A DNA stretch of 64,000 nt from Acidobacteriota bacterium (GCA_026708265.1 JAPOVI010000047.1:21398-85397), one strand, 5' to 3'; shown: positions 56,889-60,760, counted from the stretch's first letter. The notes: generated from the sequence alone by a model not told the origin. Numbers and translations: made by a program.

Positions 56889-59456
56889 CTACTCGCCGGC
56901 ATGCGAGGCGGGCAGACCCGGCGCATCCGGCGAAGCCGACGCCGGACTCGGTGATCGCGGCGCCGCGATGGCCGCCTCGATCCGCTCGCGGACATGAGCA
57001 GCGACTTCGAGCACCTCGGCGGGTGCACGGACCGACTGGCCGGCCACTTGGCGAAGGGCGATGATCAGCGGTGCTACCGCGTCGGCGGTCTCCCCATCCT
57101 CAGCCAGGATGTCGGCAAGGTCTCGCGCAGCCGCCCCGGCGTCGAGCAGGACGGGCACACGCGCCAGCATTTCTCGCAGCATCCGCGCGTCATCGACGAA
57201 CGCGGCGCAGATTGACCGCCATGTATTCAGCGCGGCGTCGCGTTCTCCTTGAACGAGTAGTGCGTGAGCCCTTACGCAATGTGCCCGCCACAACTCGAAC
57301 GCGACCCGGGCGTCGTCCGTCAACGTGCCACACCGACGTTGGAGGTCATCGATGGTCTGCAGGGATTCTTTCGGACGGCCCATCCTGACCTGTCGATCTC
57401 CCGTCGCAACCAGCGCTACGGCCACCGTCCGTTGCAGGTCCACTCTGTCACTCGCGCCGAATCGGCCAACCACCGCGGCATAGGCCGACAACTCCGCCTC
57501 CACCTCGCCCCGTTGACCGTGCGTGATCCCCTTGTTGACCAGCGCTTTGGCAACCACGACCTGGAGATCCGGTGCAACGCTGTCGCCGAAGCGCTTGACC
57601 ACGGCGTCGTAGACTGACAACTCCGCCTCCGCCTCGCCGCGTTGACCGTGCCCTGTGCCCTTGTTAAGCAACGCCCTGGCAACCACGACCCGCACGTCCG
57701 GCACGCCGCTATCGCCGAAACGCTCGACCACCGCACCGTAGGCGGCAAGCGCCGCGTCCATCTCGCCGCGTTGGCCGTGCGTAATGCCCTTATTGAACAG
57801 CGCCTTGGCTACCCGAACCTGCAGGTCCGGCGCCCCACTGTCGCCGAAACGCTCGACCACAGCGTCATAGGCTGACAACTCCGCCTCCACCTCGCCCCGT
57901 TGGCCGTGCGTAATCCCCTTGTTGACCAGCGCCTTGGCTACCTGAACCTGCAGGTCCGGCGCCCCACTGTCGCCGAAACGCTCGACCACAGCGTCATAGG
58001 CTGACAACTCCGCCTCCACCTCGCCCCGTTGGCCGTGCGTGATTCCCTTGTTGACCAGCGCCCGGGCAACCACGACCTGAAGGTCCGGCGCAGAGCTATC
58101 GCCGAAACGCTCGACGACCGCTTCGTAGGCCGACAGCTCCGCCTCCGTTTCGCCGCGCTTGCCGTGGGCGATTCCCTTGTTCACTAGCGCCTTAGTGACC
58201 TCCAGCTGTAGGTCTGACGCCGCGCTGGTCCCCAAGCGCGCCTTCCCCCGATCGCTCACCGCCAGTGCTGCCAGCTCATCGCCGCTATAGAACACCGTCA
58301 TGAACTGGATCAGGTGGCGGACGATCGCGGCCTCGCCGCGTTCCCGTCGTAGTTTGTAGTAAATGCTGTACAGCCGCTCCGCGGCAGCGTACCGCCGCTT
58401 CCTGCCTGTCCCTTCCACGAGCACGGCGCCCCGGTCGACCAGCCTTCCGAGCAGCGCGGAAACGGCACGTACGTCCGTGCGCGCCCGCGCCGCAATTTCA
58501 GCGGTGCTCGACGGTTGCCAGAGGTCGATCACCGCGAGATAGACGCGACGCTCCGTCTTGGCAAGCACATCCAGATGGCCTCGGAAGTACTCGGTGTGGT
58601 TATCGATCAGCGTCACCAGGTCTTCCAGAAGCTGTCGCAGCGACGCGTGGCGCGCCAACTCGGCGACGATTGCCAGCAGGCGTGGGCTGCCGCCGGTCAG
58701 GATCCGAAGCGGTTCGATCTCGCGCCCTTGTCCGACGTCGCCACTGACCATGTGCCAGAGATACCGGCATTCGTCGGTATCCAGCGGTTCCAAATCGACG
58801 ATGCGGAACTGCTCGAAGAACGGCTGCGCGGCGTCGTCGAGCCCCTTGAACCGACTGGTCGCGGTGGCAAGCAGAACGACCTGGGGTTCCGCCTGCAGCG
58901 TCTTGCGGAGCTTCCAGCCGAAATCGTCGTCGACGGCGTTGGACAGGGCCTGCAGATTCTCGACCATGAGCACGAGCCGCCTGCCCAACCGCTCCGCCGC
59001 TTCCAGGACGGCAGCATGTGCGCGATCCTCCGTGGCCCCGTCGTTCCATCGTGCGTTCAGATCGCCGTGCGTCGCGAGTAGCTCCCGGGAGTGCTCCGCA
59101 TCGCCGGCCTGCGCGCATGCCTGGGCCAGGTAGAACAACGCTTCGATCCAGAAGTCAGCCATCGTGAAGACTTCCTGGCTCTCTTCCATGAATCGGACCG
59201 GAAACAGACGCCCGGTGAGATCGGCGTTGGTTCGTAGCTCGACGCCGACGCGGGCCAACAGCATGGTCTTGCCCCGACCGCGCGGTGCGACGATGAGCAC
59301 GTGCTGACAAGACGATGAATCGAGATTCCCGCGCAGGACGTCGAGCACGAGGTCAAGCTCCCGGTGCCGGACCACGAACTGTCGGACCACCTCGTCATCC
59401 GACTGCAACGTCCCGGGGTTGAACTTACGGATCGGTCGGTCGTGCGCTCCGTTCAT
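56889..59456 (-). CDS. STAND-like NTPase: N-terminal P-loop ATPase, winged-helix region, C-terminal tandem TPR-like repeats
   Basis: 855 aa; Walker A 'IVAPRGRGKTMLLARV', Walker B-like 'LVLMVENLQAL', 'VVLLATATSRF', wHTH 'AEIAARARTDVRAVSALLGRLVDRGAVLVEGTGRKRRYAAAERLYSIYYKLRRERGE', then repeats 'KALVNKGITHGQRGEVEAELSAYDAVVERFGDSGAPDLQVQVA'. ATG overlaps the upstream gene's stop (ATGA). Confidence 0.88.
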   Translation of the reverse strand: MNGAHDRPIRKFNPGTLQSDDEVVRQFVVRHRELDLVLDVLRGNLDSSSCQHVLIVAPRGRGKTMLLARVGVELRTNADLTGRLFPVRFMEESQEVFTMADFWIEALFYLAQACAQAGDAEHSRELLATHGDLNARWNDGATEDRAHAAVLEAAERLGRRLVLMVENLQALSNAVDDDFGWKLRKTLQAEPQVVLLATATSRFKGLDDAAQPFFEQFRIVDLEPLDTDECRYLWHMVSGDVGQGREIEPLRILTGGSPRLLAIVAELARHASLRQLLEDLVTLIDNHTEYFRGHLDVLAKTERRVYLAVIDLWQPSSTAEIAARARTDVRAVSALLGRLVDRGAVLVEGTGRKRRYAAAERLYSIYYKLRRERGEAAIVRHLIQFMTVFYSGDELAALAVSDRGKARLGTSAASDLQLEVTKALVNKGIAHGKRGETEAELSAYEAVVERFGDSSAPDLQVVVARALVNKGITHGQRGEVEAELSAYDAVVERFGDSGAPDLQVQVAKALVNKGITHGQRGEVEAELSAYDAVVERFGDSGAPDLQVRVAKALFNKGITHGQRGEMDAALAAYGAVVERFGDSGVPDVRVVVARALLNKGTGHGQRGEAEAELSVYDAVVKRFGDSVAPDLQVVVAKALVNKGITHGQRGEVEAELSAYAAVVGRFGASDRVDLQRTVAVALVATGDRQVRMGRPKESLQTIDDLQRRCGTLTDDARVAFELWRAHCVRAHALLVQGERDAALNTWRSICAAFVDDARMLREMLARVPVLLDAGAAARDLADILAEDGETADAVAPLIIALRQVAGQSVRAPAEVLEVAAHVRERIEAAIAAPRSPSPASASPDAPGLPASHAGE
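57440..58235 (-). repeat. 129-bp (43-aa) tandem repeats, about 6 units, encoding TPR-like modules
   Basis: Unit KALVNKGITHGQRGEVEAELSAYDAVVERFGDSGAPDLQVQVA. DNA from 57815 recurs at 57944 with a ~97-bp perfectly identical stretch. Confidence 0.9.
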
Positions 59457-60688
59457 CGGTCCGCCCCGGGCATGTTTGCTGTGCGCGCCCGCTGCTCCAG
59501 CGGGACATGGTGACCGCGAAAGCGCGCAGACCACCAGTCTCTCAGCAGCCTCGACGGGAAGCGAAATCCGTCGTCGGCGTCCTCGAGATAGCCGTCGTGC
59601 GCCAGGACGTCCAGCACGTCGGTGATGCGACTGGGCACGTCGGCAGCGACCGGCGCGTAGCACTGTTCAAGGCCGCGCCTCGCAGTTGGCGTGAACGCTC
59701 CTTGGATGGCGGCTTCGGCCAGGATCTCCATCGCGATTGTGTGAAGGTCGTCTTCCAGCGCCTCCTTGAGACGCGTCTGGTAGTGCACGAGGTCGTTCTG
59801 CCCCGCCGGCCCGAGCAGCACCGTGCGGTAGACGGTGTCTACGTCCGCCACCGTCACTCGCTCGCGGTTGTTCATGACAGCGAACTCCCGCAACCGGGCG
59901 AAGAAGGACTGCACGTGGTGCGGAATGCCGAGCCCGATCGTGTCGTACACGGCGTCCGCCACGCCTTCCTCGACCCGCAACCCGTGGTTCGCGGCCAGAA
60001 AGTCGAAACACGTCGTGCTGGTGCGACGGTCCCACGGTCCCAAGCGCAGGGGATCGAGATAGTTGATGCGGTCGGGGATGCCGAGGCGCTGCACCAGGGG
60101 TGCGAGCCCGATGCTGCCGGATACGATGAGGACCGGAGAACCGGCGTCGATGCCTTGCATGGCGCCGCGCAGCCAGCTCAGGAACTCGTCGACCCGCCGA
60201 GAGCCGTCGCCATCCCTGTCGAGGATTCGCTTGAGGAGTATCGGCAGCTCATCAATGACCAGGAGAACCTGTTGTTCGCGCAGTGCGCATTCGCGGATCA
60301 GTTGTTCGCCGCGGCGGCGCCAGTTGCCGGCGTTCAGGCCGGCGCGGATCTTCAAGCGAAACTCGAGTGCGCTCACTTCGTCCACGTTCTCGGTGAACCA
60401 GCGCAACCCCGTGGTGACACGCGAGGCGACCGGATGCAGAGCCTGCGCGATGTCGGCGATCACGTCCTCCGCACAGGTCGCGCCTTCGACGTCGGTGAAG
60501 AGGACGACCCATGCCTCGAGTTGAAGCCGTCGTCCCAGCTCTCGCACGATGCTGGTCTTCCCCATGCGCCGCTGGCCGGTCAGCAACGTGTGGTTGCCGG
60601 CGCGGACCCGCGCGTCCAGGACCTGCAACTCGGATTCGCGATTGAAGAAGTCGTCTCCGCTCACCCAGCGGCCCGTTGCCAATCTCAT
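59453..60688 (-). CDS. P-loop ATP-binding protein (archaeal-type ATPase/AAA-like) with C-terminal wHTH-like region
   Basis: 411 aa; Walker A 'LLTGQRRMGKTSIVREL', Walker B 'VLLVIDELPILL', 'VLIVSGSIGLAPL', C-terminal 'VLDVLAHDGYLEDADDGFRFPSRLLRDWWSARF'. GGAGG 5 nt upstream of ATG. Confidence 0.88.
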   Translation of the reverse strand: MRLATGRWVSGDDFFNRESELQVLDARVRAGNHTLLTGQRRMGKTSIVRELGRRLQLEAWVVLFTDVEGATCAEDVIADIAQALHPVASRVTTGLRWFTENVDEVSALEFRLKIRAGLNAGNWRRRGEQLIRECALREQQVLLVIDELPILLKRILDRDGDGSRRVDEFLSWLRGAMQGIDAGSPVLIVSGSIGLAPLVQRLGIPDRINYLDPLRLGPWDRRTSTTCFDFLAANHGLRVEEGVADAVYDTIGLGIPHHVQSFFARLREFAVMNNRERVTVADVDTVYRTVLLGPAGQNDLVHYQTRLKEALEDDLHTIAMEILAEAAIQGAFTPTARRGLEQCYAPVAADVPSRITDVLDVLAHDGYLEDADDGFRFPSRLLRDWWSARFRGHHVPLEQRARTANMPGADR

Positions 60689-60700
60689 GCGGACCCTCCA

Positions 60701-60760
60701 GTCAACCGATCTGTTGACACTCTATCCGTCAACAAATTCGTTGTCAACGAGATCGTTGAC
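60701..60760 (-). promoter_or_regulatory. Promoter with three palindromic operator-like sites for the NTPase operon
   Basis: Minus strand TTGACA (60742-60747), 17-nt spacer, TAGAGT (60719-60724). Palindromes GTCAAC-CGATCT-GTTGAC (60701-60718), CAAC-N6-GTTG (60730-60743), GTCAACGA-GA-TCGTTGAC (60743-60760). Confidence 0.75.

What the first reader, a model, noticed from the sequence alone, without database searches (positions are those of the whole stretch)
56889..60760. Two-gene STAND-like NTPase operon with dedicated operators: candidate undescribed conflict/defence or signalling system
Seen: gene 1 (411 aa, classical Walker A/B ATPase, wHTH-like C-terminus) and gene 2 (855 aa, NTPase, winged helix, TPR-like repeats) are translationally coupled (ATGA) behind one operator-rich promoter, flanked by unrelated housekeeping genes. 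Known: NTPase-wHTH-superhelical repeat is the architecture of STAND sensors, including NLR-like antiphage proteins. Inference: gene 2 senses a ligand through its repeats and gene 1 is a second NTPase or effector. No classical nuclease, TIR or protease domain is visible, so the output mechanism is unknown.
Basis: partly seen in the sequence, partly recalled or inferred. Interest (0 to 1): 0.8.

Follow-up and report, generated by a model that had tools for sequence, protein, structure and literature searches.

The report
Self-controlled two-NTPase STAND sensor pair
Two adjacent ATPase genes form a mobile two-gene unit that has spread across at least 11 bacterial phyla, mostly in sponge symbionts, and nearly always carries its own highly conserved DNA switch, which suggests that one protein both senses a signal and represses the pair until it is needed.

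Summary
g1 (411 aa) and g2 (855 aa) overlap by ATGA behind an operator array. Both are paralogous STAND-type ATPases; g2 adds a winged helix and a 43-aa TPR array. Downstream g2 was present in all 77 GTDB homologue loci whose contig reached that far, across 11 phyla with cross-phylum mixing, at least 51 of 80 from sponge symbionts.

The new point is the operator. CAAC-N6-GTTG arrays lie on the -35 and spacer of g1's promoter (134 sites in 80 upstream regions; 5.4/kb against 0.04/kb elsewhere). The arrays persist in 25%-identity homologues; one keeps the geometry with another half-site. g2 copies without intact g1 keep the operator, and carrier genomes rarely hold it elsewhere, so self-repression by g2's winged helix is the best reading.

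g1 is broken in 12 of 80 loci; g2 in none (p=0.0003). The TPR array usually diverges fastest. I infer g2 = sensor-repressor, g1 = costly effector. Defence is plausible (distant g2 homologues lie beside Pycsar and Qat genes), but close homologues showed no clear defence-gene enrichment next door. Ligand, g1 activity and phage phenotype are untested. Closest known: STAND MNS-clade/ATPase_2 and PH0952. Verdict: new variant of a known kind.

The parts
59453..60688 (-). gene 1: 411-aa STAND-type P-loop ATPase; Walker A GQRRMGKTS, Walker B VLLVIDELP (D146/E147), GxP motif GIPHHVQ, C-terminal winged-helix-like domain ending LLRDWWSARFR; probable effector/partner
   Evidence: AF2 pLDDT 90; Foldseek best 2fna, 2qen
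56889..59456 (-). gene 2: 855-aa STAND-type ATPase + winged helix + TPR array + conserved C-terminal cap; probable sensor and repressor. Start ATG overlaps the gene 1 stop (ATGA)
   Evidence: AF2 pLDDT 88; Foldseek best 6mfv, STAND-TPR protein
58347..58595 (-). winged helix of gene 2 (about residues 288-370), recognition helix about residues 328-341 (DVRAVSALLGRLVD); S333, R338, L339 98% conserved
57455..58193 (-). 129-bp tandem repeat coding the 43-aa TPR-like helical repeats of gene 2 (5.7 copies, 81% matches)
60743..60760 (-). operator site 1: GTCAACGATCTCGTTGAC
60728..60745 (-). operator site 2: GACAACGAATTTGTTGAC, 15 bp from site 1
60701..60718 (-). operator site 3: GTCAACAGATCGGTTGAC, 27 bp from site 2, between -10 and the start codon
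60742..60747 (-). -35 box TTGACA inside the central GTTGaCAAC shared by sites 1 and 2
   Evidence: 63 of 81 upstream regions have this central GTTGnCAAC
60719..60724 (-). -10 box TAGAGT, 17 nt after the -35 box; followed by a GGAGG ribosome site before the gene 1 ATG

Best explanation
This is a horizontally acquired, self-contained and autoregulated two-protein STAND NTPase module. Gene 2 is the sensor-repressor: its winged helix binds the CAAC-N6-GTTG array that covers the -35 box and spacer of its own promoter, and so keeps the operon off. Its fast-evolving TPR superhelix recognises a ligand, perhaps a component of an invader. Ligand binding would drive the usual NTP-dependent STAND switch, release the operator and license gene 1. 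Gene 1 is a paralogous ATPase with an intact Walker B and acts as the costly effector or partner. Shown by sequence: the pair's conservation, the operator and its promoter overlap, its near-exclusive linkage to this gene pair, the domain make-up, cross-phylum mixing, faster divergence of the TPR array, and preferential loss of gene 1. Inferred: that gene 2 is the DNA binder and a repressor, that the ligand enters through the TPRs, that gene 1 executes the output, and that the role is in conflict or defence.
For: g2 follows g1 in 77 of 80 loci, the other three being cut by contig ends; the two protein distance matrices agree (Mantel r 0.93); g1 and g2 are paralogues. CAAC-N6-GTTG: 134 sites in 80 upstream regions, 5.4/kb against 0.038/kb elsewhere; other spacers of 0-15 give at most 6; 58 site pairs lie 15 bp apart. 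The array overlaps TTGACA with TAnnnT 17 nt on. The core CAAC-N6-GTTG survives in the 25%-identity homologue L010; Moraxella (24% g2 identity) has three CTAT-N6-ATAG sites 27 bp apart, and L120 has CTAC-N6-GTAG. Carrier genomes hold only a few such sites and most mark g1/g2 loci. g2 copies without intact g1 keep operators: L051, L072, L130, Agrobacterium, L177. The recognition helix is conserved in g2 and the matching stretch of g1 is not. g1 is broken in 12 of 80 and g2 N-termini in 0 of 77 (p = 0.0003). TPR arrays diverge faster than g1 and the g2 N-terminus in most close pairs. Folds: 2fna, 2qen; 6mfv.
Against: No experiment. Gene 1 could be the DNA binder or a co-repressor, since most operator-bearing genomes have both genes. 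Direct neighbours of close homologues show no clear enrichment for PADLOC models over more distant genes. No homologue was found in phage records or viral contigs, and no effector chemistry is visible in gene 1. Some operators stand alone, which I read as scars but which could be regulon members. In two close pairs the TPR array is not the faster part (L051/L072, L070/L074).
Confidence: 0.6

Rival explanations
1. Gene 1 (alone or in a g1-g2 hetero-complex) is the operator-binding protein and gene 2 is only the sensor.
For: Gene 1 also ends in a winged-helix-like domain and sits directly behind the operator.
Against: g2-only units keep operators (Agrobacterium; L130; L177; also L051 and L072, where a g1 is nearby); g1 is often broken while the operator stays; g1's candidate recognition helix is poorly conserved although the half-site is not.
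Confidence: 0.15
2. Toxin-antitoxin-like or selfish module: gene 1 is a toxin, gene 2 its neutralising autorepressor, kept by addiction rather than by defence.
For: Two-gene overlapping operon, autoregulatory operator, cross-phylum mixing, gene 1 decays while gene 2 stays, operator scar after loss.
Against: g2 is far larger than any classical antitoxin and carries an NTPase plus a diversifying TPR sensor; loss of both genes is tolerated in a same-genus genome. The two readings overlap.
Confidence: 0.25
3. Host-interaction factor: the TPR protein is one of the eukaryotic-like repeat proteins enriched in sponge symbionts.
For: At least 51 of 80 loci come from sponge MAG projects (with PMC9531527 and PMC8163846, which report TPR enrichment).
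Against: No signal or export domain in the family scans; fused to a cytoplasmic-type ATPase and winged helix with a conserved promoter operator; also in free-living Chromatiaceae and on Agrobacterium and Moraxella plasmids.
Confidence: 0.07
4. Ordinary transcription regulator (MalT-like STAND activator) of a wider regulon.
For: STAND-winged helix-TPR proteins such as MalT are regulators; a few operators lie away from the pair, one upstream of an LRR/dockerin gene.
Against: Only a few operators per 4-6 Mb genome, most at g1/g2 loci; the layout over -35 and spacer fits repression, not activation.
Confidence: 0.1

Closest known systems
STAND NTPases of the MNS clade / archaeal ATPase_2 (PF01637, COG1672; structures SSO1545 2fna and PABY2304 2qen)
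   Same: P-loop ATPase with GxP motif and C-terminal winged helix; best fold matches for gene 1
   Different: Those I know are single genes of unknown role; here two paralogues form a conserved pair with a conserved operator
PH0952 (PDB 6mfv), STAND protein with TPR sensor
   Same: NTPase-winged helix-TPR order; best PDB match of gene 2
   Different: Archaeal (name from my own knowledge); I know of no partner ATPase or cognate operator; gene 2's repeats are 43 aa, near-identical in some members and expanding
NLR-like antiphage STAND proteins (Avs, bNACHT)
   Same: NTPase plus superhelical sensor; works-like resemblance
   Different: No effector domain, not NACHT; no Avs/NACHT-type profile match
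Regulators of defence operons (CapW/BrxR WYL, CapH-CapP, CapK-CapS)
   Same: Winged-helix or HTH repressor encoded beside and controlling an immune operon (PMC9122601, PMC13373217, abstracts)
   Different: Those are separate regulator genes; here the repressor is probably the NTPase sensor itself
MADS system protein MAD8 (PADLOC mads_8)
   Same: Weak profile match of gene 1 over the P-loop region (E 7e-5)
   Different: Match covers only residues 17-105; no other mads gene adjoins the window pair

Membership tests
STAND NTPase (MNS clade / ATPase_2) | Walker A and Walker B of a P-loop ATPase | tested here: met
   g1 GQRRMGKTS and VIDELP invariant or nearly so; g2 APRGRGKT invariant core, Walker B reads VEN/VDN (N167 invariant), so hydrolysis may be weak
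STAND NTPase (MNS clade / ATPase_2) | GxP motif after the ATPase core | tested here: met
   g1 G254-I-P256, g2 G256-S-P258
STAND NTPase (MNS clade / ATPase_2) | C-terminal winged helix and superhelical sensor | tested here: met
   g2 winged helix and TPR by Pfam and AF2; g1 has the winged-helix-like domain but no superhelix
STAND NTPase (MNS clade / ATPase_2) | curated ATPase_2 (PF01637) score reached | tested here: not met
   window g1 22.0 bits against cut-off 33.2; homologue g2 27.6 bits; AAA_22 (g1) and AAA_16 (g2) are reached. So placed by motif and fold, not by this profile
STAND NTPase (MNS clade / ATPase_2) | ligand- and NTP-driven oligomeric switch | not testable with these tools
   needs biochemistry
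Avs / NACHT antiphage proteins | NACHT/Avs ATPase profile and N-terminal effector | tested here: not met
   no such Pfam, NCBIfam or PADLOC match
MADS | multi-gene mad operon with full-length MAD8 | tested here: not met
   partial match over residues 17-105 only; no third operon gene in close homologues
Pycsar | cyclase plus effector in the operon | tested here: not met
   window pair stands alone; only distant plasmid g2 homologues adjoin Pycsar genes
Toxin-antitoxin system | toxin growth arrest reversed by partner | not testable with these tools
   asymmetric decay of gene 1 is suggestive only

The most novel reading that the evidence does not exclude
A class of conflict system in which an NLR-like STAND protein with a rapidly diversifying TPR sensor is at once the invader sensor and the DNA-bound repressor of its own operon, so that recognition is turned directly into transcription of, and activation of, a paralogous effector ATPase; it has moved between phyla among sponge symbionts.
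Probability: 0.3. Interest if true: 0.85.

Novelty: new variant of a known kind. Interest (0 to 1): 0.7.

Why it matters
Apart from regulators such as MalT, I know of no STAND sensor with a cognate operator; an operator conserved from Acidobacteria to Gammaproteobacteria gives a ready in vitro read-out (DNA release) for finding ligands of an NLR-like protein. It may explain part of the TPR enrichment in sponge symbionts, usually ascribed to host mimicry, as intracellular conflict machinery instead.

Tried and rejected
Third operon gene: clustering of flanking ORFs found none recurrent; the next gene is co-directional within 60 bp in only 1 of 62 loci. Defence-island enrichment: PADLOC scan of 119 adjacent against 62 distal genes, no clear excess; the output lists only the top 25 families, so this is a rough test. 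Pfam scan of adjacent genes: mostly unrelated housekeeping functions. Viral contigs and phage records: no homologue. Wider regulon: few extra operators, some at decayed copies. TIR, nuclease, protease or membrane effector: none found. Literature search for a described STAND autorepressor with TPR: nothing matching in the open-access library. MADS papers: primary papers not held.

Full report
What is there. The two genes are as described: g1 59453-60688 (-) and g2 56889-59456 (-), overlapping by ATGA. Pfam gives g1 a generic P-loop ATPase and g2 an ATPase, a TrmB/MarR-like winged helix and TPRs; no effector domain is found in Pfam, NCBIfam or PADLOC, and PDB sequence search finds nothing close. 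AlphaFold models are confident (g1 pLDDT 90, pTM 0.87; g2 pLDDT 88, pTM 0.79). g1 is closest to the archaeal ATPases SSO1545 and PABY2304 and then Orc1/Cdc6 and RuvB; g2 is closest to the STAND-TPR protein 6mfv. The two proteins are paralogues over ATPase and winged helix. Both carry a GxP motif. g1 keeps a standard Walker B (DE); g2 reads VEN or VDN with an invariant Asn, so g2 may bind more than hydrolyse nucleotide (inference).

Conservation as a unit. A GTDB scan gave 80 kept loci of 189 relatives. g2 lies directly downstream of g1 in 77; the other three are cut by contig ends. Protein distance matrices agree (Mantel r 0.93). Eleven phyla are represented, and the g2 tree needs 28 phylum changes where 10 is the least, with starred cross-phylum pairs such as Pseudomonadota/Binatota; the tool warns that mislabelled bins and paralogues can add changes, so this is strong but not final evidence for transfer. 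g2 occurs in 9 of 297 sampled genomes of the own phylum, so it is accessory.

The operator. Upstream of g1 most homologues carry CAAC-N6-GTTG-a-CAAC-N6-GTTG. Counts: 134 sites in 24.6 kb upstream against 51 in 1,335 kb elsewhere, and some of the 51 are g1 promoters whose start was misplaced. Only the 6-base spacer is enriched (134 against at most 6 for other spacers), and 15 bp is the commonest distance between sites. TTGACA of the central GTTGaCAAC is the -35 box, and TAnnnT follows 17 nt later, the layout of a repressor site. Divergent clades vary it: GTTGgCAAC or GTTGcCAAC (41-44% identity, L124-L130), CTAC-N6-GTAG (L120, with a similar but imperfect site in L121), and in Moraxella (24% g2 identity) three CTAT-N6-ATAG sites 27 bp apart. 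The core is unchanged in the 25%-identity locus L010. Genome-wide, carriers hold only a few such sites, most at g1/g2 loci.

Which protein binds. g2-only units keep the operator: second g2 copies in L051 and L072, the L130 copy and the Agrobacterium homologue, whose promoter faces two Pycsar cyclases. g1-truncated units keep it too (L177). g2's recognition helix is among the most conserved stretches; g1's equivalent is not. So g2 is the likely binder; this is inference.

Asymmetric decay. g1 has internal stops or frameshifts in 12 of 80 loci, at ten distinct positions (L116, L118 and L119 share one); g2 N-termini in 0 of 77 (Fisher p 0.0003), and the g2 C-terminal ends printed all keep the conserved cap region except the remote L048. 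The loci were found with g1, so this sampling does not favour broken g1. The own genome has a second, degenerate pair in which g1 lacks its Walker A region. This fits g1 as a costly effector and g2 as the controller.

Sensor. The repeat unit is 43 aa (129 bp). Arrays reach 25.7 copies at 92% in L062 while its close relative L063 has 9.6. Between pairs with g1 identity of 94-97% the TPR part is 31-85% identical (one 99% pair shows little difference); over all pairs listed the TPR part is usually the most divergent, with exceptions (L051/L072, L070/L074).

History at this site. tolC and the glycosyltransferase are adjacent without the pair in seven other genera of the same order (L198-L201, L203-L206) and in same-genus genome G331, but in G331 the intergenic region still holds CAACGGTTTCGTTGTCAACTGGCGCGTTG, an operator scar; the other genomes checked have none. 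So the pair was most simply gained in this genus and lost again in G331.

Ecology. At least 51 of 80 loci come from sponge MAG projects: 20 jk18/p16 bins (the jk18 names appear in the Ircinia paper PMC9531527; p16 is assigned to it by accession series), 24 with prefixes matching the sponge species of PMC8163846, and 7 Aplysina bins by accession (my own knowledge plus that paper). Free-living Chromatiaceae carry it too. PMC8163846 reports enrichment of defence systems and of TPR proteins in sponge symbionts.

Defence? Distant g2 homologues lie beside Pycsar genes (Sphingobium, Agrobacterium) and in a Moraxella plasmid island with Qat, CARF and methylase genes. Close homologues show a few restriction-modification, TIR and reverse-transcriptase neighbours but no clear excess over distal genes. 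I rate conflict or defence as the likeliest role at about one half; autoregulation is better supported than the role.

Limits. The window genome is a draft (446 contigs, 9.4% contamination), though the synteny places this contig correctly. Gene calls for neighbours were heuristic. No binding, expression or phage data exist.

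Noticed in passing
L220 (G331:C26), tolC-glycosyltransferase intergenic region: Same-genus genome lacks g1/g2 but keeps the operator array CAACGGTTTCGTTGTCAACTGGCGCGTTG at the orthologous place: a scar of loss.
   Followed up: yes
L046 and L047 (own genome C244, C444): Second, degenerate g1/g2 copy in the own genome: g1 lacks the Walker A region by an in-frame deletion; operator of the GTTGgCAAC class remains.
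   Followed up: partly
L183 7084-13195 (Agrobacterium plasmid NZ_CP074400): g2 homologue without g1, divergent from two Pycsar cyclases and a ThiF gene, with CAACAATTTTGTTG and GTTGCCAAC in the shared promoter: may control a Pycsar operon.
   Followed up: partly
L182 and L186 (Sphingobium plasmid NZ_CP128177): g2 homologue lies between an E2/E1-JAB-TIR-ATPase gene set and a cyclase plus Pycsar effector pair.
   Followed up: partly
L184 8752-17656 (Moraxella osloensis plasmid): g1/g2-like pair heads a seven-gene run with dUTPase, phosphoribosyltransferase-like, ATPase, CARF and methylase genes; three CTAT-N6-ATAG operators upstream.
   Followed up: partly
L181 3223-5842: Full operator array upstream of a secreted-looking LRR/dockerin protein in a Gemmatimonadota genome: scar or a true second target.
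   Followed up: partly
L062 11249-16486: g2 of 1745 aa with 25.7 copies of the 129-bp repeat at 92% match; close relative L063 has 9.6 copies.
   Followed up: partly
L116, L118, L119 gene 1: The same single-base frameshift at the GxP motif in three separate assemblies, both halves still conserved: inherited inactivation or programmed frameshift.
   Followed up: no
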